Positions 2,247 through 34,954 of a stretch of 45,462 nucleotides of DNA are shown piece after piece (within the stretch, counting starts at the first letter, position 1; every line of letters begins with the position of its first letter). The position numbers and the translations under genes are program-made. Source of the stretch: an uncultured Ruminococcus sp. (GTDB taxonomy: Bacteria; Bacillota; Clostridia; Oscillospirales; Acutalibacteraceae); the NCBI GenBank assembly GCA_902793125.1, contig CADBCC010000021.1:1-45462 (forward strand). The letters are read 5' to 3'. A model generated the notes under the pieces. The model saw only the letters and a program-made list of their open reading frames with translations, did no database searches and had not been told where the DNA came from.

Positions 2247-2939
2247 ATGAGTGAAAAGAAAGTTAAAGAGGAAAAGAAGCCGAGCAAATGGCTTCAAACA
2301 TATAAGGTAATTCGTAATACAGTTTTAGGGCTGGTAATCGCGGTTCTTGCCGTATTTATAGTATTGGTTATGATTACGCGAATTTCGGGCGGCACTCCCT
2401 CTGTTTTCGGTTATTCGATGTTCCGCGTAAGCTCGGGAAGTATGAAACCCGCGCTCGAGGTCGGCGACGTAATTATTACGAAAGAATTTGACCCGATGAC
2501 TGTGAAAAAAGGGGATATAGTTACTTATAAAAGCGAGTCAGGCCCAATGGCAGGCAGGATGGTAACCCACCGCGTTATACGGGGACCTTATAAAAATAAA
2601 GGAAAGTTTTACGTAATTACAAAGGGTGACTCCAATGTTTCCGAGGATGATCCCATAAGAGTTGACCAGGTTGAGTCAAAATATCTTTTTAAAATTTCAA
2701 TACTGACGTTTATATATAATATTTTCGTAACGCCCGCGGGATTGCTTATTGTAATCGGACTGGTTATTTTCGCTTTCTTTAACGAGATTGTTATCTTCTT
2801 TAAAGCGATAACGGGAATCGGTTACGAGGATGAATCCGAGGAAAGCGTAGAAGATATTATCGAACGTTACCAAAAAGAAAATCAAAAACTCCAGAAATCC
2901 GAGGATAGCCCGGATGATGAATCAAAACCCGGAGGATAA
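2247..2939 (+). CDS. sipW: SipW-type (ER-type) signal peptidase I
   Basis: This 230-residue membrane peptidase has a transmembrane segment at about residues 24-48, a catalytic domain, and a second transmembrane segment at about 155-180. The catalytic serine lies in SSGSMKPAL. The general base is the histidine of VTHRVI, in place of the lysine of ordinary bacterial signal peptidases. An acidic residue follows in ITKGDSNVSEDDP. These are the marks of the archaeal/endoplasmic reticulum type typified by Bacillus SipW. The C-terminal tail is acidic and cytosolic-like. It sits 2 bases after the TasA-like gene and 2 bases before a lipoprotein gene, so co-expression with its substrates is very likely. 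The family call is firm; the identity of its substrates is inferred from position and from the signal-peptide style of the upstream gene. Confidence 0.88.
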   Translation: MSEKKVKEEKKPSKWLQTYKVIRNTVLGLVIAVLAVFIVLVMITRISGGTPSVFGYSMFRVSSGSMKPALEVGDVIITKEFDPMTVKKGDIVTYKSESGPMAGRMVTHRVIRGPYKNKGKFYVITKGDSNVSEDDPIRVDQVESKYLFKISILTFIYNIFVTPAGLLIVIGLVIFAFFNEIVIFFKAITGIGYEDESEESVEDIIERYQKENQKLQKSEDSPDDESKPGG

Positions 2940-27036: not shown

Positions 27037-27516
27037 ATGGCTAATAAAACAGTTGATTTGTCTTTGCTTGACGGCGTGCTGAATGAATACGCTCAGGTTA
27101 AAGGCAGCCTCATCACCATTTTACAGAACACACAGGATATTTACGGATATCTTCCCAAAGAAGCGATTGAGCTTATCTCCGAAAAAACGGGTATCGCGAC
27201 ATCCGAGATTATGGGCGTCGGCACTTTCTATACCCAGTTCAGATTTGAGCCTGTGGGAAAATATCTGATTATGCTTTGCCAGGGTACCGCCTGCCACGTT
27301 AACTCATCCGAGCTGATTTTACAGACAATTAAAGACGAGCTCGGAATTGACGACGGACAGACCACCGAGGACGGACTTTTCTCGCTTAAATGCGTAGCGT
27401 GTCTCGGATGCTGTTCGCTCTCTCCCGTTATGATGATTAACGAGGACACTTACGGCAGCCTTACTCCTGATAAGACTAAGAAAATTCTTAAAGATTTAAG
27501 GGAGGCTTCAAAGTGA
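27037..27516 (+). CDS. NuoE-like [2Fe-2S] subunit (StnA-like)
   Basis: The 159-residue protein belongs to the 24-kDa NuoE/HydC group. The thioredoxin-like part has four cysteines for one [2Fe-2S] cluster: one in CQGTACHV, counted as two cysteines, and two in VACLGCCSLSP. It would pass electrons between the flavoprotein subunit encoded next and the rest of the complex. Its stop overlaps the next start by four bases (GTGA), a sign of tight coupling. Relatives occur in complex I, bifurcating [FeFe] hydrogenases, NAD-dependent formate dehydrogenases and Stn-type transhydrogenases. The third gene of the operon favours the last. Confidence 0.92.
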   Translation: MANKTVDLSLLDGVLNEYAQVKGSLITILQNTQDIYGYLPKEAIELISEKTGIATSEIMGVGTFYTQFRFEPVGKYLIMLCQGTACHVNSSELILQTIKDELGIDDGQTTEDGLFSLKCVACLGCCSLSPVMMINEDTYGSLTPDKTKKILKDLREASK

Positions 27517-29258
27517 GAATAGTTATCGGTCAGGGTTCCTGCGGTATTGCCGCGGGCGCTGAAAAAGTCAGAAAAGCCCTTCTTAATACAAACTTAAAGA
27601 ACGCCGAAATATCAATAACCGGATGTATCGGTATGTGTTATCTTGAGCCTATCGTAGATATTTATGATGAAAACAATAAACTTACAAGGCTCGTAAGAGT
27701 AAGCGAAAACGACGCTGAAGCTATCGCGTCTTATGTTGAAAGCGGAGATGAAAAGCTCGTTGAAAAGCTTATTGTTTCCGATGAAGACAGCGAGTTCCTC
27801 TCCAAACAAACCCGTATTGCTCTGAGAAACTGCGGTGTAATTAATCCCGAGAAGATCGACGAGTATGTAAACGCCGGCGGTTATGAAGCGCTGAAAAAAT
27901 CACTTTGCGATATGACTCCCGAGGACGTTATCGAAGTAATTAAAACTTCCGGACTTGCGGGTCGCGGCGGAGCGGGATTCCCGACATGGTTTAAATGGAA
28001 CGCCGCTCGAAGCAGCGAGGGCGATGAAAAATATCTTATCTGTAACGCTGACGAGGGCGACCCCGGAGCGTTTATGGACAGAGCGGTTATCGAGTCCGAT
28101 CCGCATAATCTAATCGAGGGCATGTTAATCGGCGCATACGCAATCGGCGCAAAACACGCTGTTGTATATGTCCGCGCGGAGTATCCTCTTGCTATTAAGC
28201 GTCTTAAAAACGCTATTAAACAGGCTACGGAAAAAGGAATTATCGGCGAGAATATTTTCGGCAGCGGATTCTCCTGTGACTTTACTATTAAAGCAGGCGC
28301 AGGCGCGTTCGTATGCGGCGAGGAGACCGCGCTTATCGAAAGCCTTGAAGGCCACCGCGGAATGCCGAGATTAAAGCCTCCTTTCCCGGCGCAGTCGGGA
28401 TTCTGGAGAAAGCCGTCTAATATCAACAACGTTGAAACTTTCGCTAATGTAAGCTGGATTATCCAAAACGGCGGCGAGGCGTTCGCGGCTATGGGAACCG
28501 AAGGCTCCAAGGGTACTAAGGTATTCGCCGTAACAGGTAAGGTTAAGCGTTCGGGACTTGTTGAGATTCCTATGGGTAAAACCTTAAAGGATGTAATTTT
28601 CGGCATCGGCGGCGGAATGAAAACCGATAAGCCCTTTAAAGCTGTCCAGATGGGCGGACCTTCGGGCGGATGTATTCCCGCTGATTTAATTGATACGGTT
28701 ATCGATTATAAAGCCCTCGGCGCTACAGGCGCGATTATGGGCTCGGGCGGTATGGTTGTTATGGACGAAAGCACCTGTATGGTAGGAATGGCTAAGTTCT
28801 TCCTCGATTTTACCGCGAAAGAAAGCTGCGGAAAATGTATCCATTGCAGAATCGGTACAAAGCGTATGCTCGAAATGCTCGACCGTATTACAAAAGGCGA
28901 GGGCAAAGAGGGAGATATCGAGCTGCTTGAGGAACTTTGTTACTCAATTAAAGACGGCGCTCTCTGCGGCCTTGGACAGACAGCTCCAAACCCGGTACTT
29001 ACAACAATCAAGTACTTCCGTAATGAATACGAAGCCCATATAAAGGATAAGAAATGTCCGGCGGGCGAGTGCAGCGACCTTATTGAATATAAGATTATCG
29101 CTGATAAATGTAAAGGATGTACGCTCTGCGCAAGAAACTGTCCCGTTAACGCTATCACAGGTACTGTTAAGAATCCGCATGTTATCAATACAGAGAAATG
29201 TATTAAGTGCGGTAAATGTTATACAAGCTGTAAATTCGGCGCTATAGTTAAGGAATAA
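27513..29258 (+). CDS. NuoF-like FMN/Fe-S flavoprotein with C-terminal ferredoxin domain (StnB-like)
   Basis: The 581-residue subunit starts with a thioredoxin-like [2Fe-2S] domain (cysteines in QGSCGI and TGCIGMC). It continues with the NuoF core: GRGGAGFPTWFKW at about residue 149 for FMN, and NADEGDPGAFMDRA for NAD(H). The [4Fe-4S] motif CGKCIHC follows at about 437, and two ferredoxin motifs (CKGCTLCARNCP and CIKCGKCYTSCK) form the C-terminus. This layout matches HydB/StnB, the flavin site of electron bifurcation. The start is GTG, with GGGAGG 8 bases upstream. It lies between the NuoE-like and GltD-like fusion genes in one operon. Confidence 0.93.
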   Translation: MRIVIGQGSCGIAAGAEKVRKALLNTNLKNAEISITGCIGMCYLEPIVDIYDENNKLTRLVRVSENDAEAIASYVESGDEKLVEKLIVSDEDSEFLSKQTRIALRNCGVINPEKIDEYVNAGGYEALKKSLCDMTPEDVIEVIKTSGLAGRGGAGFPTWFKWNAARSSEGDEKYLICNADEGDPGAFMDRAVIESDPHNLIEGMLIGAYAIGAKHAVVYVRAEYPLAIKRLKNAIKQATEKGIIGENIFGSGFSCDFTIKAGAGAFVCGEETALIESLEGHRGMPRLKPPFPAQSGFWRKPSNINNVETFANVSWIIQNGGEAFAAMGTEGSKGTKVFAVTGKVKRSGLVEIPMGKTLKDVIFGIGGGMKTDKPFKAVQMGGPSGGCIPADLIDTVIDYKALGATGAIMGSGGMVVMDESTCMVGMAKFFLDFTAKESCGKCIHCRIGTKRMLEMLDRITKGEGKEGDIELLEELCYSIKDGALCGLGQTAPNPVLTTIKYFRNEYEAHIKDKKCPAGECSDLIEYKIIADKCKGCTLCARNCPVNAITGTVKNPHVINTEKCIKCGKCYTSCKFGAIVKE

Positions 29259-29270
29259 GGAGGGGTACGA

Positions 29271-31469
29271 ATGATTAATTTAACAATAAACGGAAAAGCT
29301 GTTCAAGCCCCTGAAGGTTCCACAATCTTAGAGGCGGCACGTTCGGCGGGAATATATATCCCCACACTTTGCTACGATGAGGCTGTGGAAGTTTACGGCG
29401 CCTGCGGACTTTGCGTTGTTGAGGCTGAGGGTATTCCCAAACTTCTGCGCTCCTGCTCGGCAAAAGTAAGCGAGGGTATGGTAGTTAATACCGAAAGCGA
29501 AAGAGTTGTTCAGTCAAGAAAAGTCGCTATGGAGCTTCTTATGTCAGCTCACGACGGCGACTGCGTAGCTCCCTGCCAGCTCAACTGTCCCGCAAGAACC
29601 GACTGTCAGGGCTATGTCGGCTTAATTGCCAACGGCGAGTACGACGCCGCGTTAAAACTTATTAAGAATAAAATCGCGCTTCCCGCTTCGATCGGACGAG
29701 TTTGTCCGCATCCCTGCGAGAAAGCCTGCCGCAGAAAGAATGTTGAGGAACCGATTAATATAGCTCAGCTTAAAGCTTTCGCGGCTGATATGGATTTAAA
29801 ATCCGACAGTTATATCCCCGAGGTTAAACCTTCTACTGGTAAGAAAATCGCCGTAATCGGCGGCGGCCCCGCGGGACTCACAGCGGCTTATTATCTTACA
29901 ATAATGGGCCACAGCGTAACTGTTTACGATATGATGGATAAAATGGGCGGTATGCTCCGCTACGGTATTCCTCAGTACAGACTTCCCAAAGAAGTTTTGG
30001 ATAAGGAAATCGCCATCATCGAAAAGACAGGCGTTAAGTTCATTAACAACGTAAAATTAGGCGTTGACTTTACAATTAAATCTCTTAAAGAGGAAAACGA
30101 CGCGGTTATCGTTGCGGTAGGCGCGTGGAAGTCCAGCTCAATGCGTACCGAGGGCGAAGACCTCGAGGGCGTATACGGCGGTATCGATTTCCTCAGAGGT
30201 GTTATTAAAGGCAACGCTCCCGAAATCGGCGAGAAAGTCGCAATCTGCGGCGGCGGCAACACAGCTATGGACGCCTGCCGTACAGCGGTAAGACTCGGCG
30301 CTAAAGAAGTTTACGTAGTATACAGAAGAACAAGAAACGAAATGCCTGCCGACAAGCTTGAGATTGATGAAGCCGAGGAAGAGGGCGTAATCTATAAGTT
30401 CCTTACAAACCCGCTTTCGTTTAACGGCGAAAACGGTAAGGTTAAATCCGTGACTCTCCAGATTATGGAGCTCGGCGAGCCTGACGCTTCCGGAAGACGC
30501 AGACCTGTTCCCGTTGAGGGCAAGACCGAGGAAATCGACGTTGACAGCGTAATTTTAGCTATCGGCCAGAAACTTGTTACCGACGACGTACAGGAGCTTG
30601 AGCTCAACGAAAGAGGCAATATATCTGCCGACAGCGACTTCTTTACAACAAACATTGACGGTGTATTCGCAATCGGCGACGCTACAAACCGCGGAGCTTC
30701 AATCGCGATTGAGGCTATCGGTGAGGCCGACCGCTGTGCTAAAGCGGTTGACGCTTACTTAAACGGCGAAAAGTTAGATACAAGAGTTCCTTATATCAGC
30801 AAGCGCGATGAGAGCACAATCGACTACTCCGACCGCGAAAAGCAGAGCAGACTCACTCCGAAAGTTCTTCCCGCCGATGTTCGAAACAAGAACTTCGACG
30901 AAGTAAGCTTAGGCTTTACCGAGGAAGAGGCTCAGAAAGAAGCGAGCCGCTGTCTTGAATGCGGATGCCGCGAGTATTATAAATGTAAACTTCTTAATGT
31001 CGCTCAGAGATATGATATTAACCCCGAGCGTTTTAAAGGCGAAATGCCTCAGAAATATACCCACGACGAAAACGCGTTCATCGAGAGAAATACATCGAAA
31101 TGTATTCTCTGCGGACTTTGCGTACGTTCCTGCCGCGAGGTTATGAACCTTTCCTCAATCGGACTTATGGGACGCGGATTTAAGACTGACGTCAGTCCCG
31201 CGTTCTCGCTTCCGCTTGATCAGACTAACTGTAATAACTGCGGACTTTGCGTACAGCTTTGTCCCACAGGTTCGCTCACAGAGAAGTTTAACCTTAAAAA
31301 GCAGGTTCCGCTCGACGAGAATTATACCGAAGAGTTTGTTGAAATCGACGGCAAAAAATCGAGCGTTCTTGTATCGCGCTATAACGGAAAGATTCTCAGA
31401 GTTATCCCGAATGACGAAATCTCCCGCAACAGCGGACTTACAAGAGAAGAGCTTCAGGCTAAATTATAA
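29271..31469 (+). CDS. NuoG-N/GltD-like NADP(H) oxidoreductase with ferredoxin domains (StnC-like)
   Basis: The 732-residue protein begins with a plant-type [2Fe-2S] domain (cysteines at CYDE, CGLC and RSC, about residues 34-63). Next comes a GltD/NfnB-like part. This has its cysteine-rich linker (CQLNCPARTDC and CPHPCEKACRR), an FAD site at GGGPAGLTAAYYL near residue 198, and an NADP(H) site at GGGNTAMDACRTA with the VVYRR segment near 325-352. The C-terminus carries ferredoxin motifs (CILCGLCVRSC and CNNCGLCVQLCP). No H-cluster motifs are seen, so it is not the catalytic subunit of an [FeFe] hydrogenase. With the two genes before it, this matches the Sporomusa-type Nfn transhydrogenase StnABC, which links NADH, ferredoxin and NADPH. 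A glutamate synthase small subunit is less likely, as no large subunit is nearby. Confidence 0.88.
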   Translation: MINLTINGKAVQAPEGSTILEAARSAGIYIPTLCYDEAVEVYGACGLCVVEAEGIPKLLRSCSAKVSEGMVVNTESERVVQSRKVAMELLMSAHDGDCVAPCQLNCPARTDCQGYVGLIANGEYDAALKLIKNKIALPASIGRVCPHPCEKACRRKNVEEPINIAQLKAFAADMDLKSDSYIPEVKPSTGKKIAVIGGGPAGLTAAYYLTIMGHSVTVYDMMDKMGGMLRYGIPQYRLPKEVLDKEIAIIEKTGVKFINNVKLGVDFTIKSLKEENDAVIVAVGAWKSSSMRTEGEDLEGVYGGIDFLRGVIKGNAPEIGEKVAICGGGNTAMDACRTAVRLGAKEVYVVYRRTRNEMPADKLEIDEAEEEGVIYKFLTNPLSFNGENGKVKSVTLQIMELGEPDASGRRRPVPVEGKTEEIDVDSVILAIGQKLVTDDVQELELNERGNISADSDFFTTNIDGVFAIGDATNRGASIAIEAIGEADRCAKAVDAYLNGEKLDTRVPYISKRDESTIDYSDREKQSRLTPKVLPADVRNKNFDEVSLGFTEEEAQKEASRCLECGCREYYKCKLLNVAQRYDINPERFKGEMPQKYTHDENAFIERNTSKCILCGLCVRSCREVMNLSSIGLMGRGFKTDVSPAFSLPLDQTNCNNCGLCVQLCPTGSLTEKFNLKKQVPLDENYTEEFVEIDGKKSSVLVSRYNGKILRVIPNDEISRNSGLTREELQAKL

Positions 31470-31674: not shown

Positions 31675-32169
31675 ATGAATATTAAAAAGAAACTTTATGT
31701 TGCCGGAGTCAGCGCCTTAATTGCAGTTTTTATGGCGTCCTGCTCCTGCGCTTCAGGCGGAAATACCGCCTCAAAAACTAACGAAACCTCAGGCGCGGCT
31801 GAGACAACGGCTTCCGCGGCGGCGGAGAATGAAAACAAGTCCGAAAGCGCTGCGGCTTCCAAAAGCGCGGATTCCGCGTCTAAAAACGAAAAAGCAAGCA
31901 ACGGAAGTTCTGCTTCTTCGTCTAAATCGGACGGGTCCGAAAATACAAAAAAGAACTCAAAAAAGAGTTCTTCAGCTTCTAAGGATTCAAAGTCCGGCTC
32001 AAGCTCTTCCAAGAGCTCAAAATCAAGCAAGTCGTCCAAGAGTTCCAAGAGCTCCAAATCAAGTAAATCGTCCAAGAGTTCAAAAAGCTCAACAAGCTCT
32101 GACAAAACTATCGGGGATGATGACGGTGAAGGAAAGGATAACGTGGAGGTAGATTTTAATGATCTTTAA
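31675..32169 (+). CDS. Ser/Lys-rich low-complexity lipoprotein
   Basis: The 164-residue product has a lipoprotein signal ending MASC (cysteine 23). The rest is almost wholly low-complexity: Ala/Ser/Glu/Thr-rich first, then a run of SSK triplets at about residues 105-150, and a short acidic tail ending EVDFNDL. Such a basic, flexible stalk could cross the cell wall or bind its teichoic acids or DNA; this is inference. I chose the ATG of MNIKKKLYVAG, which has a GGTGAT site 7 bases upstream and a proper signal peptide. An upstream ATG lies too close to the promoter. Its last 11 bases overlap the start of the dockerin gene, which has its own GGAGGT site inside this reading frame. Confidence 0.75.
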   Translation: MNIKKKLYVAGVSALIAVFMASCSCASGGNTASKTNETSGAAETTASAAAENENKSESAAASKSADSASKNEKASNGSSASSSKSDGSENTKKNSKKSSSASKDSKSGSSSSKSSKSSKSSKSSKSSKSSKSSKSSKSSTSSDKTIGDDDGEGKDNVEVDFNDL

Positions 32170-32668
32170 TAAAAAAGTAAAATCTGTATTAATAGGAATA
32201 GCCGCATCGGCGCTCGTGTTTACGGCGTCTGTTTCGGCAATGGCTGCTAACGAAACCGGAGTAACTATCGGCGATGTTAACGGCGACAATTTCGTTAATA
32301 TAAAAGACGTAACATTAATCCAGAAGGTAATTGCAAAATTAGTTGATGAACCCGAACATTTCCTTTTAACAGCTGATGTAAACTGCGATAATACAGTTAA
32401 TATCAAAGACGCGACAATAATCCAGAAATATATCGCTAAGATTTATAAGGAATTACCCGTTACTAATGAACCCGAAACAGAGGCGACTACCGCTTCTGAG
32501 ACGATAACAACCGATCCCCAGGGTGAAACAACGGTAACAGAGCCGCAGACAACCGCAACCGCCCCCCAGGGTGAAACAACGGTAACTGAACCGCAGACAA
32601 CTGCAACAGAGCCTCCTGCTACACAGCCTACCGATGACGGCTGGGATCCGCGTATCATTCAGCCATGA
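32159..32668 (+). CDS. Small secreted dockerin protein
   Basis: The 169-residue protein has a Sec signal peptide ending AMAA, followed at once by a type I dockerin at about residues 36-96. The two calcium-binding repeats are clear (GDVNGDNFVNIKDVTLIQ and ADVNCDNTVNIKDATIIQ). A Thr/Glu/Pro/Gln linker with two near-identical segments follows, then a distinct C-terminal tail, DDGWDPRIIQP. It has no catalytic or binding module, which is odd, since dockerins normally attach such modules to a cohesin. It overlaps the lipoprotein gene upstream, and its stop shares ATGA with the HPr-kinase-like gene. The set of PqqD-like, kinase-like and peptidase genes after it raises the idea that the tail is processed or modified; that is speculation. 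Confidence 0.9.
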   Translation: MIFNKKVKSVLIGIAASALVFTASVSAMAANETGVTIGDVNGDNFVNIKDVTLIQKVIAKLVDEPEHFLLTADVNCDNTVNIKDATIIQKYIAKIYKELPVTNEPETEATTASETITTDPQGETTVTEPQTTATAPQGETTVTEPQTTATEPPATQPTDDGWDPRIIQP

Positions 32669-33375
32669 TTTTCAGGTATAAAATAGCTGAAATTGTTTTT
32701 GAGGCTGATATAAGATACCGCTTTACTTATAATGTTATGAAAGATTACCTCGTAGACGACGAGCCTGCGAGGTTCTCCATTGTTATAAGCGATGAAGATA
32801 TAGAAAAAGAAAAAAATCTTTCGCCTTACGACCTTAATGACGCGAGCTATGAAAGCACTGCGGTTTACAGAAAGTTTATCTACGAGGTTATGGATAAGTA
32901 CGACGCGTTTTTCTTCCATTGTTCTTCTATCGCGGTGGATAATAAGGCGATTATGTTTACCGCTAAAAGCGGAACAGGAAAAAGTACTCATCGTAATTTA
33001 TGGTTGAAAAATTTCGCGGATAAAGTTACGGTAATTAATGACGATAAGCCGATTATAAGAAAAATCGACGGCGTGTTTTATGTTTTCGGTACACCGTGGC
33101 AGGGCAAAGAAAATTTCGGAGCGAATATTAAAGTTCCCGCCAAAGCGCTGTGCTTTCTTTCAAGAAGCGAAAAAAACAGTATCGGTCCGATAAAAACAAG
33201 CGATGTTGTCGCTAAAGCGCTTAACCAGACTGTCCGCCCTAAAGATCCCCGGCTTATGATAAAGCTCCTCGATTTACTCGACGGTTTTATAAGCCAGGTC
33301 GATTGTTATGATTTAAGGGTAAATATGGACGACGAAGCGGCGATTATAGCCTATAATGAAATTGTAAAGGATTGA
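32665..33375 (+). CDS. HPr kinase-like P-loop protein
   Basis: The 236-residue protein has the HprK/PEP-carboxykinase-like fold, with the nucleotide loop AKSGTGKSTH at about residues 100-109 and the INDDKPIIR segment that follows in such proteins. It lacks the N-terminal DRTGG-type domain of true HPr kinases and the usual HPr context. Relatives of this short type sit beside PqqD-like proteins, and one group phosphorylates lasso peptide precursors (as in the paeninodin cluster). Here it is followed by PqqD-like and peptidase genes, but no lasso cyclase or radical SAM enzyme is in the window. It has no clear ribosome site and overlaps the dockerin stop by four bases (ATGA), so its translation should depend on the dockerin gene. 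The substrate is unknown. Confidence 0.82.
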   Translation: MIFRYKIAEIVFEADIRYRFTYNVMKDYLVDDEPARFSIVISDEDIEKEKNLSPYDLNDASYESTAVYRKFIYEVMDKYDAFFFHCSSIAVDNKAIMFTAKSGTGKSTHRNLWLKNFADKVTVINDDKPIIRKIDGVFYVFGTPWQGKENFGANIKVPAKALCFLSRSEKNSIGPIKTSDVVAKALNQTVRPKDPRLMIKLLDLLDGFISQVDCYDLRVNMDDEAAIIAYNEIVKD

Positions 33376-33379
33376 GTTT

Positions 33380-33646
33380 ATGAAGATTAAAGACGGATTC
33401 CTGCTGAGACAGTTCGGCGAAGGGTCGATTGTTGTAGCGGTGGGAGAAGGCTCGGAAAATTTTAATAAACTTATTACACTTAATTCTGTAGGAGCTTTTA
33501 TTTTTAAAAAACTCGGCAATGATATTACACGCGAAGAACTTATTAAAAGTGTAATTGACCGCTATGATATTGATAAAGAAACTGCCGAACGCGATACGGA
33601 TGCTTTTATCGGAAAGTTAAAGGAAGCGGGACTTTTAGATGCCTGA
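33380..33646 (+). CDS. PqqD-like (RRE-type) small protein
   Basis: The 88-residue protein fits the PqqD family: an N-terminal beta-rich part ending in LITLNSVGAFIFKKL, then a helix pair with DRYDIDKETAERDTDAFIGKLKEAGLL. The LN.VG..I...L pattern is characteristic. Family members act as peptide-recognition elements that bring a precursor's leader to a modifying enzyme. An AAAGGA site overlaps the end of the kinase-like gene, and its stop overlaps the next start by eight bases. No precursor is proven here. Confidence 0.85.
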   Translation: MKIKDGFLLRQFGEGSIVVAVGEGSENFNKLITLNSVGAFIFKKLGNDITREELIKSVIDRYDIDKETAERDTDAFIGKLKEAGLLDA

Positions 33647-34097
33647 AAAAATAGAAGATGTAATTCAAAAAAGGGGTTTTGTAGTTACTCCTACCAAAGG
33701 CACGAGTATGTATCCGCTTATAAAATCAAATTGCGATAACGTATGCATAGCGAGAGCGGATAATATTTCCGTTTACGATGTAGCGCTTTACAAACGAAAA
33801 AACGGCGATTATGTGCTTCACCGAATTTTGGGAAAGAACGATAACGGATATATTCTCTGCGGAGATAATCAATGGGTTTTGGAGTATAATGTTACCGATG
33901 ATATGATTCTCGGTAAATTGGACGCGTGGTACGTAGGCGAGAAAGAATACACCGTGCGTGATAAACATTATAAAAGATACGTAAAATTATGGTGCAAATC
34001 TCTTAAACTGAGAAGAGTTATGCTTTTTATTCTTTCCCTTAAATGGAGAACAAAAAGCTTGTGTTACAAAGTATATAAGAAGGTATTTCGAAAATAA
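33639..34097 (+). CDS. S24/S26-like peptidase, Ser/His type
   Basis: The 152-residue protein has the signal-peptidase core: the serine in KGTSMYPLI at about residues 20-28, a histidine in YVLHRILG at about 58-65, and CGDNQ further on. As in SipW-type enzymes, His stands where ordinary signal peptidases have Lys. There is no N-terminal membrane anchor. A weakly hydrophobic, very basic segment near the C-terminus (RRVMLFILSLKW) may touch the membrane. It overlaps the PqqD-like gene and its stop overlaps the next start by one base. It is a candidate for cutting a peptide or protein precursor encoded in the same operon. Confidence 0.8.
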   Translation: MPEKIEDVIQKRGFVVTPTKGTSMYPLIKSNCDNVCIARADNISVYDVALYKRKNGDYVLHRILGKNDNGYILCGDNQWVLEYNVTDDMILGKLDAWYVGEKEYTVRDKHYKRYVKLWCKSLKLRRVMLFILSLKWRTKSLCYKVYKKVFRK

Positions 34098-34954
34098 TGG
34101 AAAATGTTATTTCGGTAAAAAATATGCGCGAGAGCGACGCTTTTACGATTAATACGTCCGTAAGCGGTAAAGAGCTTATGCAGAGAGCCGCGCGCGGAGT
34201 GTATGAAAGCGTAAAATGGAACGGCAGTATCGCAATTTTCTGCGGCAGCGGAAACAACGGAGGCGACGGCTACGCCTTAGCCGAGATACTTTTTGACAAC
34301 GGCTTTAGCCCCGTTATTCTTCGGCTGAGCGAAAAGTTCTCCGAGGACGGCGCGTATTATTACAACAGGTGCAAAAATAAGGGAATAAACGAGCTTTTTT
34401 GCGATGAGTTTACCGATCTGAGTTCCTATGATATAATTGTTGACTGTATTTTGGGAACAGGTTTCTCGGGTGAATTGAGAGAAGATATTATAAACCTTAT
34501 TGAAAATATAAACCGCGCTTCGGCGCACAAAGTCAGCGTAGATATAAACAGCGGGCTTTCGGGCGCAAACGGAACGGCACATCCTACGGCAGTAAAATCC
34601 GACCTTACCGTTTCAATCGGTTACTTTAAAACTGGTATGTTTTTAAACGACGCAAATACATATATAGGCTCGATTAAAAATGTTGATATAGGAATAAAGC
34701 TTTTAAAAAAGCAGTATTATCTTATTACGAAAGATGAGCTCGGCCCGTTTACAGGATATTCAAGCGTTGTGCTTTCGGCTGAAAAATTTGCGTTGGAATA
34801 CGCGACTGACGAAGCTGAGTTTAAAAGAAATCCGCTTAAAGTTATCTCGAAGGAATCCTGCGACAGCAAGAAAATTTTTGTAGTGGATTATAACGGAAGC
34901 AAACTGATAATTGACCAGACTTACGTTTATTTTCAGTCAGATAAAGTAATTTAA
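34097..34954 (+). CDS. nnrE: NAD(P)H-hydrate epimerase-like protein (YjeF N-terminal domain)
   Basis: The first 210 residues or so fit the NAD(P)H-hydrate epimerase, which interconverts the two epimers of damaged, hydrated NAD(P)H for repair. The GSGNNGGDGYALAE motif and the LGTGFSGELRE segment are present, as is the aspartate in VDINSGL. The dehydratase domain that is often fused (NnrD) is absent. About 70 residues of unrecognised sequence follow instead. Its start overlaps the peptidase stop by one base, so it is part of the same transcript. The link to the peptide-processing-like genes is unclear; it may simply be a passenger. Confidence 0.85.
   Translation: MENVISVKNMRESDAFTINTSVSGKELMQRAARGVYESVKWNGSIAIFCGSGNNGGDGYALAEILFDNGFSPVILRLSEKFSEDGAYYYNRCKNKGINELFCDEFTDLSSYDIIVDCILGTGFSGELREDIINLIENINRASAHKVSVDINSGLSGANGTAHPTAVKSDLTVSIGYFKTGMFLNDANTYIGSIKNVDIGIKLLKKQYYLITKDELGPFTGYSSVVLSAEKFALEYATDEAEFKRNPLKVISKESCDSKKIFVVDYNGSKLIIDQTYVYFQSDKVI

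What the first reader, a model, noticed from the sequence alone, without database searches (positions are those of the whole stretch)
31675..34097. Coupled operon of a stalk lipoprotein, dockerin, HprK-like kinase, PqqD-like protein and Ser/His peptidase
Five genes are joined by overlaps or gaps of four bases or fewer (GGAGGT inside the previous gene, ATGA, 4-base gap, 8-base overlap). This implies one stoichiometric system. PqqD-like, HprK-like and signal-peptidase-like proteins together suggest recognition, phosphorylation and cleavage of a peptide or protein. No radical SAM enzyme, lasso cyclase or transporter is present. Coupling to a module-free dockerin protein and a wall-spanning lipoprotein suggests a surface-display or modification pathway that I cannot match to a described system.
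Basis: partly seen in the sequence, partly recalled or inferred. Interest (0 to 1): 0.72.

Follow-up and report, generated by a model that had tools for sequence, protein, structure and literature searches.

The report
Shared maturation hub for scattered peptides
A rumen-type gut bacterium carries a kinase, a peptide-binding protein and a peptide-cutting enzyme in one operon that most likely matures a dozen small peptides encoded elsewhere in its genome, many of them right behind large secreted proteins, and the operon also makes two surface proteins with conserved tails of unknown role.

Summary
The operon is real: lipoprotein, dockerin, HprK-like kinase, PqqD-like protein and S26 peptidase at 31675-34097. 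The triad matches the LppK/LppB/LppS machinery of linear polyphosphorylated peptides (LPP; PMC13381572), so it is not an undescribed kind. New is the layout. Beside the triad in 24 syntenic loci I found no credible precursor; the precursors look scattered. The own genome has 13 profile hits to YxxP-leader peptides, and 7 of 10 examined lie just behind a large protein. In 150 family genomes leader hits occur in 28, all with PqqD and kinase, and in 0 of 78 without PqqD. Of 14 clade genomes searched, 11 with the operon's PqqD have 4-13 leaders, three that lost it have 0-2 (two independent losses). The same losses removed the dockerin gene but kept the kinase. Both surface proteins end in conserved tails; some tails recur as peptide cores (clear in 3 of 14 relatives; lipoprotein tails p 3e-5, overstated by kinship; dockerin tail p 0.59 overall, one suggestive own-genome case). 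Best reading: a trans-acting LPP-type hub, a new variant. That it also modifies the surface proteins' tails is possible, not shown. No chemistry was tested.

The parts
31675..32169 (+). lipoprotein: lipobox signal peptide, Ser/Lys-rich stalk, conserved C-terminal tail
   Evidence: sequence; tail expression found in 20 of 24 distinct clade loci (21 with duplicate L133); L039 and L042 have the protein with a variant tail, seen by eye; the contigs of L050 and L051 start too near to tell
32134..32166 (+). lipoprotein tail KDNVEVDFNDL
   Evidence: DNA pattern for DNVE[VIM]DF occurs once in the own genome
32159..32668 (+). secreted dockerin protein: signal peptide, dockerin, Thr/Pro linker, conserved tail
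   Evidence: Pfam Dockerin_1 7e-12; of 18 clade members scanned 15 match a dockerin, 2 Big_2
32630..32665 (+). dockerin-protein tail TDDGWDPRIIQP
   Evidence: an ORF with a tail [WY].{2,4}[IVL].{1,2}P abuts the kinase in 20 of 20 distinct clade loci with PqqD and in 0 of 4 without; these positions are part of the search expression, the Gly before them (18 of 20) is not
32665..33375 (+). HprK-like kinase (LppK-like); Walker A at 32962-32988
   Evidence: pLDDT 95.7; HprK/P best, E 1.2e-5, TM-scores 0.37/0.50
33380..33646 (+). PqqD-like RiPP recognition element (LppB-like)
   Evidence: PF05402 6.7e-16; profile matches TbiB1 5v1u 1.9e-12, TfuB1 6jx3 3.4e-8, 9x8z 3.7e-8, 9x90 5e-7
33639..34097 (+). 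SipW/Sec11-type S26 peptidase (LppS-like), Ser23 (33705-33707), His61 (33819-33821), Asp76 (33864-33866)
   Evidence: these residues invariant in 46 sequences; model pLDDT 92.1; Foldseek top hits 7p2q (signal peptidase complex) and 4n31 (SipA), none under E 0.001
34097..34954 (+). NAD(P)H-hydrate epimerase, overlaps S26 by one base; conserved neighbour, housekeeping, probably not part of the system
   Evidence: TIGR00197 1.2e-39; synteny

Best explanation
The operon is a trans-acting maturation hub for a scattered family of LPP-type peptides. Inferred working: the PqqD-like RRE binds the YxxP leader of about a dozen precursors encoded elsewhere; the HprK-like kinase phosphorylates the Ser that follows the [DE]-x-[LIVT] step (DVLxxS), the counterpart of Ser3 of LppA; the S26 peptidase cuts the leader just before it; an ABC exporter, perhaps the one beside the second PqqD/S26 pair on contig C35, sends the peptide out to act with the large protein encoded just ahead of it. 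The lipoprotein and dockerin proteins are surface carriers or partners whose tails in part resemble peptide cores. Shown by computation: operon, folds, conserved catalytic residues, scattered leader peptides, genome-level co-occurrence, co-loss. Inferred: binding, phosphorylation, cut site, export, role of the tails.
For: Triad identity. Scattered precursors: pattern 14 hits against 1 in the reversed control, ten of them read as leader peptides; 13 profile hits at E<=1e-4 in the own genome. Co-occurrence in 150 family genomes: leaders in 28, PqqD in 72, kinase in 72, both in 71; 28 of 28 leader genomes have both, Fisher p 4e-11 against PqqD; leaving out seven genomes known to have given rows to the leader profile, 21 of 65 against 0 of 78, p 8e-9. 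Clade: 11 genomes with the operon PqqD have 4-13 leaders at E<1e-3, three without have 2, 0, 0 (my count from the table; exact p 0.0027); the operon-type S26 is missing from the same three; two losses. Conserved Ser in 75 of 77 peptides. 28 of 36 distinct peptides have an ORF of 200 aa or more ending within 400 nt upstream, control 8 of 26.
Against: Two losses are two events, so the clade test is small, and genomes are not independent in any of these tests. The leader profile favours its own conserved Ser, so 75 of 77 is inflated; ten of its 24 rows are from the own genome, so 13 is inflated too. A second PqqD/S26 pair exists in the own genome and could serve some precursors. No exporter or NTP transferase in the operon. 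The leaders lack most of the published LPP consensus (HQ, FET). 44 of 72 PqqD genomes show no leader at E<=1e-4, so either many are missed or those systems use other substrates. One losing genome (G477) keeps two leaders. Nothing was tested at the bench.
Confidence: 0.65

Rival explanations
1. The triad acts on the two operon proteins: the tails of the dockerin protein and lipoprotein are leaderless substrates, modified in the cytoplasm before Sec export, so that modified tails are shown on the cell surface.
For: Dockerin-protein gene, PqqD and S26 lost together, twice, while the kinase stays, with the lipoprotein where it can be seen. Tail kept while the body changes from dockerin to Big_2. 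Same core motif on a YxxP leader peptide and an exported protein of one locus: L062 MPENMT.IS, L066 QDDN.V.DPF, L170 DNDIADPWG; 3 of 14 loci, permutation p 0.0034. L152: two adjacent exported proteins share an 18-residue tail. Lipoprotein tails against leader cores of the same genome: combined p 2.6e-5 over 13 genomes, led by G477. An own-genome leader peptide (C13:11151) ends TDPDGYKENMFQP, like the window tail TDDGWDPRIIQP.
Against: 11 of 14 loci show no shared core. The combined lipoprotein p treats related tails as independent; 9 of its 13 single p values are above 0.1. Dockerin tail against leader cores: combined p 0.59 over 11 genomes, own genome alone p 0.065. The dockerin tail has no invariant Ser or Thr position. 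The last codon of the tail overlaps the kinase start codon in all but one of the 20 loci, which constrains the final Pro codon.
Confidence: 0.22
2. The scattered YxxP peptides belong to the second PqqD/S26/ABC cluster (contig C35); the window triad has another, unknown substrate.
For: The second pair has an ABC-exporter-like gene behind it by eye, and in the losing genomes G479 and G484 a weak leader hit (E 0.019 and 0.0025) lies about 2.3 and 1.1 kb ahead of it.
Against: The three genomes with only the second pair have 0-2 leaders; G474 and G478, where only the operon PqqD was found, have 4 each. The own genome has one kinase match at E<=0.01, the window's.
Confidence: 0.1
3. The kinase is a metabolic HPr kinase/phosphorylase and the neighbours are incidental.
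For: Fold resemblance to HprK/P.
Against: Of 73 genomes with either protein, 71 have both kinase and PqqD; the kinase has no Pfam match; its best sequence models are SynChlorMet ScmC and HprK-related kinase B.
Confidence: 0.03

Closest known systems
Linear polyphosphorylated peptides (LPP; lppAKBSDN of Paenibacillus alginolyticus; PMC13381572, abstract and sections 6, 7, 9, 11, 12 read)
   Same: HprK-like kinase, discrete PqqD-like RRE and SipW-like Ser/His/Asp peptidase in one operon; precursors with a YxxP leader and a Ser a few residues after the presumed cut; no macrolactam cyclase beside them
   Different: Precursors are not in the operon but scattered, many behind large proteins; leader lacks HQ and FET; no exporter or NTP transferase in the operon; two surface proteins with conserved tails instead. 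The paper's main text holds no 'lipoprotein', 'signal peptide', 'secreted', 'S-layer' or 'Clostridia'
Paeninodin-like phosphorylated lasso peptides (recalled, and as described in PMC13381572)
   Same: HprK-like kinase and PqqD-like RRE with an aromatic-xxP leader
   Different: No cyclase or transglutaminase-type B2 peptidase among the eight window proteins scanned; leaders are YxxP, not WxxP
Prochlorosins (PMC10783134, passages seen)
   Same: One enzyme serves many precursors that can be scattered over the genome
   Different: Lanthipeptides made by ProcM-type enzymes; unrelated enzymes and chemistry
SynChlorMet and HPr-rel-A cassettes (NCBIfam models; what the cassettes are is recalled)
   Same: HprK-related kinase beside a PqqD-family protein
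   Different: All scores far below the curated cut-offs

Membership tests
LPP | HprK-like kinase | tested here: met
LPP | discrete PqqD-like RRE | tested here: met
LPP | SipW-like peptidase with Ser/His/Asp | tested here: met
LPP | precursor with YxxP leader in the same cluster | tested here: not met
   loose motif matched in 3 of 24 clade loci, all three rejected by eye, up to 4.5 kb each side where contigs allow; strict form in 0 clade loci and 18 others; leader peptides found elsewhere in the genome
LPP | full leader consensus YxxPxVLxHQxIxFETxxS | tested here: not met
   by eye only YxxP, a hydrophobic pattern and the late Ser are shared
LPP | MsbA-like exporter and NTP transferase in the cluster | tested here: not met
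   absent from the window operon; NTP transferase near the triad in 3 of 19 clade triads; ABC-like gene beside the second pair
LPP | RRE falls in the LPP clade of the RRE tree | not tested
   reference RRE sequences not at hand
LPP | phosphorylation of the core Ser | not testable with these tools
   needs mass spectrometry
Paeninodin-like lasso peptide | macrolactam cyclase and B2 peptidase beside the kinase and RRE | tested here: not met
   neither among the eight window proteins scanned; not searched genome-wide
Cellulosome | dockerin with possible cohesin partners in the genome | tested here: met
   dockerin; six cohesin matches, five over the cut-off, three of them in one 1656-aa frame; that they pair was not tested

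The most novel reading that the evidence does not exclude
RiPP-type machinery that, besides small leader peptides, modifies the C-terminal tails of Sec-exported, surface-anchored proteins (lipoprotein, dockerin, SLH-like), so that phosphorylated peptide cores are displayed on the cell surface or on the cohesin scaffold.
Probability: 0.24. Interest if true: 0.82.

Novelty: new variant of a known kind. Interest (0 to 1): 0.64.

Why it matters
LPPs were described in 2026 from Bacilli with unknown role. A version in rumen-type Oscillospirales in which one hub appears to serve many scattered peptides, many of them encoded behind large secreted proteins, gives a clue to function (surface or adhesion, not only warfare), a set of 4 to 13 candidate substrates in each of the 11 clade genomes with the operon PqqD and a clear genetic test. 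If the shared tails are substrates too, it would extend leader-guided modification to displayed surface proteins.

Tried and rejected
Local precursor beside the window triad: none credible (no leader hit on the window contig). Radical SAM or lasso cyclase: none among the ten neighbour proteins of relatives scanned nor the eight window proteins. Dockerin tail as a general match to leader cores: not supported. Core sharing as a general rule: only 3 of 14 loci. PDB sequence searches with single proteins gave nothing, the kinase profile gave nothing. Pfam and NCBIfam know none of five leader peptides. Tail conservation as a mere coupling artefact: rejected for the G, W/Y and I positions, which use different codons; the last Pro codon overlaps the kinase start in all but one locus and says little. 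Duplicates: L133 is the same contig as L048 and was dropped and in counts called distinct; the counts still include it.
Full report
The operon. A sixth gene, an NAD(P)H-hydrate epimerase, starts on the last base of S26; it and SseB lie downstream in 23 of 24 clade loci and look like housekeeping genes.

What the proteins are. The dockerin (7e-12) and PqqD-like protein (6.7e-16) are clear. The S26-like protein matches the archaeal-type signal peptidase model below its cut-off (9.6e-6); Ser23, His61 and Asp76 are invariant in 46 relatives, the same kinds of residue as S29, H68 and D93, which PMC13381572 shows to be catalytic in LppS. The kinase is weak by sequence and has no Pfam match, but a confident model (pLDDT 95.7) finds HprK/P first and then PEP carboxykinases (TM-scores are modest). 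The PqqD profile matches the lasso RREs TbiB1 and TfuB1 and two recent PqqD-family entries, 9x8z and 9x90; I suspect that these are LppB and PbaB1 but did not check.

The known system. Popov et al. 2026 (PMC13381572; abstract and sections 6, 7, 9, 11, 12 read, other passages by search) describe LPPs: precursor with YxxP leader, kinase LppK adding phosphates to core Ser3, RRE LppB, SipW-like leader peptidase LppS, exporter LppD, NTP transferase LppN. The window has K, B and S but no A, D or N. Of 131 related loci outside the clade, 76 have the triad, 33 of these with an ABC exporter and 12 with the NTP transferase (families named by Pfam), and 18 loci have YxxP leader peptides of a strict form upstream.

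Where the precursors are. Around the 24 clade loci a loose leader motif matched in 3, and I rejected all three by eye; the strict form gave none. Several of these loci are cut by contig ends. In the own genome a DNA pattern for MK..YxxPE gave 14 hits against 1 in the reversed control; ten were read as leader peptides, and a profile of 24 leaders (A4; ten rows are from the own genome) finds 13 at E<=1e-4, none on the window contig. Of the ten, seven lie 60 nt or less behind a large protein (477 to over 2000 aa); five of these seven show a signal-peptide-like N-terminus by eye, the other two N-termini were not fetched. Over the own genome and fetched relatives, 28 of 36 distinct peptides have an ORF of at least 200 aa ending within 400 nt upstream, against 8 of 26 control ORFs (the script counted 30 of 38, two of which were fragments of listed peptides; a few of the upstream ORFs are plainly not secreted, for example those of L210 and L237). 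Many of the upstream proteins end in a similar stretch (ARFYV..YYA.Y).

Co-occurrence. In the same 150 family genomes the kinase is found in 72 (E<=1e-5), PqqD in 72 (E<=1e-8), both in 71, and leaders in 28 (E<=1e-4), all 28 with both. Against PqqD the Fisher p is 4e-11; without the seven genomes known to have given rows to the leader profile it is 8e-9. 44 PqqD genomes show no leader at this cut-off.

Natural deletions. In four clade loci (L038, L039, L042, L051) PqqD, S26 and the dockerin-protein gene are missing, while the kinase stays; the lipoprotein is seen in L038, L039 and L042, and the contig of L051 starts too near to tell. All 20 other distinct clade loci have PqqD and a tail-bearing gene abutting the kinase; L033 lacks S26 only. 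The kinase tree needs two changes. Of the clade, 14 genomes were searched, that of L038 not among them. The three that lost the operon PqqD have 2, 0 and 0 leaders at E<1e-3, the other eleven 4 to 13 (counts made by hand from the table; exact p 0.0027). All three keep a second, more distant PqqD/S26 pair, which in the own genome sits on contig C35 with an ABC-exporter-like gene. So the scattered peptides follow the window-type pair rather than the second pair.

The conserved Ser. In 75 of 77 peptides a Ser stands three residues after the [DE]-x-hydrophobic step. The profile favours this Ser, so the figure is biased upward. In LppA the residues around the cut are FET|AQS and Ser3 is phosphorylated; by analogy the cut here would be DVL|xxS. 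This is inference.

The tails. The dockerin protein of the clade keeps a C-terminal tail [DE]G[WY]...I.[QRK]P in most members while its body changes: 15 of 18 members scanned match a dockerin, two Big_2. I found the tails with an expression that fixes the aromatic, the aliphatic and the last Pro, so their constancy at those places is by construction; what is not is that no PqqD-bearing clade locus lacks such a gene, and that G (18 of 20) stands before the aromatic. G, W/Y and I use different codons, so selection is on the protein; the last Pro codon overlaps the kinase start in all but one locus and says less. An expression for such tails is enriched upstream of the kinase: 11 of 151 ORFs against 0 of 1268 in the clade, 6 of 852 against 2 of 6670 outside it (the expression was written after seeing tails, the clade loci are related and one is a duplicate, so the p values are only a guide). 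The lipoprotein keeps a tail like KDNVEVDFxDL (20 of 24 distinct loci by expression).

Are tails peptide cores? For: L062, L066 and L170 have a leader peptide and an exported protein with the same core motif (3 of 14 loci; p 0.0034; the core of L066 matches L170 as well as its own locus); L152 has two adjacent exported proteins, one with S-layer-homology-like repeats by eye, ending in the same 18 residues; lipoprotein tails resemble leader cores of their own genomes (combined p 2.6e-5, 13 genomes treated as independent, four single p values below 0.03); one own-genome leader peptide ends TDPDGYKENMFQP. Against: 11 of 14 loci show nothing, 9 of 13 lipoprotein tests are above 0.1, and the dockerin tail does not match leader cores in general (combined p 0.59, 11 genomes). 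Not every leader of each genome was read (81 peptides). I therefore keep this as the bold reading, not the main one.

Literature. Searches for dockerin + PqqD (0 papers); four of PqqD, S-layer homology, lipoprotein, kinase, RiPP (1 paper, on graspetides, listing only); four of HPr kinase, PqqD, precursor peptide, phosphorylat, Oscillospir (3 papers); three of Ruminococcus, RRE, precursor peptides, dockerin (4 papers); and LPP names (74 papers, 20 listed, only PMC13381572 to the point). From titles, abstracts and the passages seen, none describes scattered LPP-type precursors or such tails; the library holds open-licence papers only. PMC7533575 (passages seen) reports HPr kinase and PqqD with lasso clusters in rumen bacteria. 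The scattered-precursor layout itself is known from prochlorosins (PMC10783134, passages seen).

Verdict. A trans-acting LPP-type hub with scattered precursors, a new variant of a kind described in 2026; the tail-modification idea is open and testable.

Noticed in passing
G000 contig C35:1-3207 (L132, L258): Second PqqD + S26 pair with an ABC-exporter-like gene behind it and a BspA-type LRR secreted protein ahead; relatives have dockerin-like proteins ahead of it.
   Followed up: partly
G000 contigs C1, C2, C3, C4, C10, C13, C17, C34, C37, C39 (L202-L210, L301-L304): Own-genome leader peptides; several share cores (for example ..F[TS]VEDIL on C17 and C37, near-identical peptides on C4 and C34).
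   Followed up: partly
L202-L241, C-termini of the proteins ahead of leader peptides: Recurring C-terminal stretch with ARFYV..YYA.Y in large proteins; of seven own-genome proteins scanned by Pfam three had no match and none was named for this stretch.
   Followed up: no
L152 and L170, upstream of the kinase: Pairs of exported proteins with different bodies and nearly the same tail, with internal DN..DPWG motifs that recur as the core of a leader peptide in L170.
   Followed up: partly
L081, L101, L102 and L093, L096, L097: HprK-like genes without PqqD beside other recurrent gene sets (964-1165-aa and 381-408-aa genes; a 414-420-aa gene): possibly other uses of this kinase family.
   Followed up: no
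L055, L062, L064, L065, L088: LytR-CpsA-Psr-like genes (sequence cluster c21; Pfam checked in L055 only) near the kinase, in line with the polysaccharide-locus link reported for LPP.
   Followed up: no
window 27037-31469: Three genes ahead of the operon; the third (29271-31469) is glutamate-synthase-small-subunit-like with ferredoxin domains, the first two look NuoE- and NuoF-like by eye; in L039 and L042 the gene ahead is a shorter relative (473 and 462 aa).
   Followed up: no
window 2247-2939: A weak hit of the S26 profile (2400-2687) in a 230-aa ORF far from the operon.
   Followed up: no
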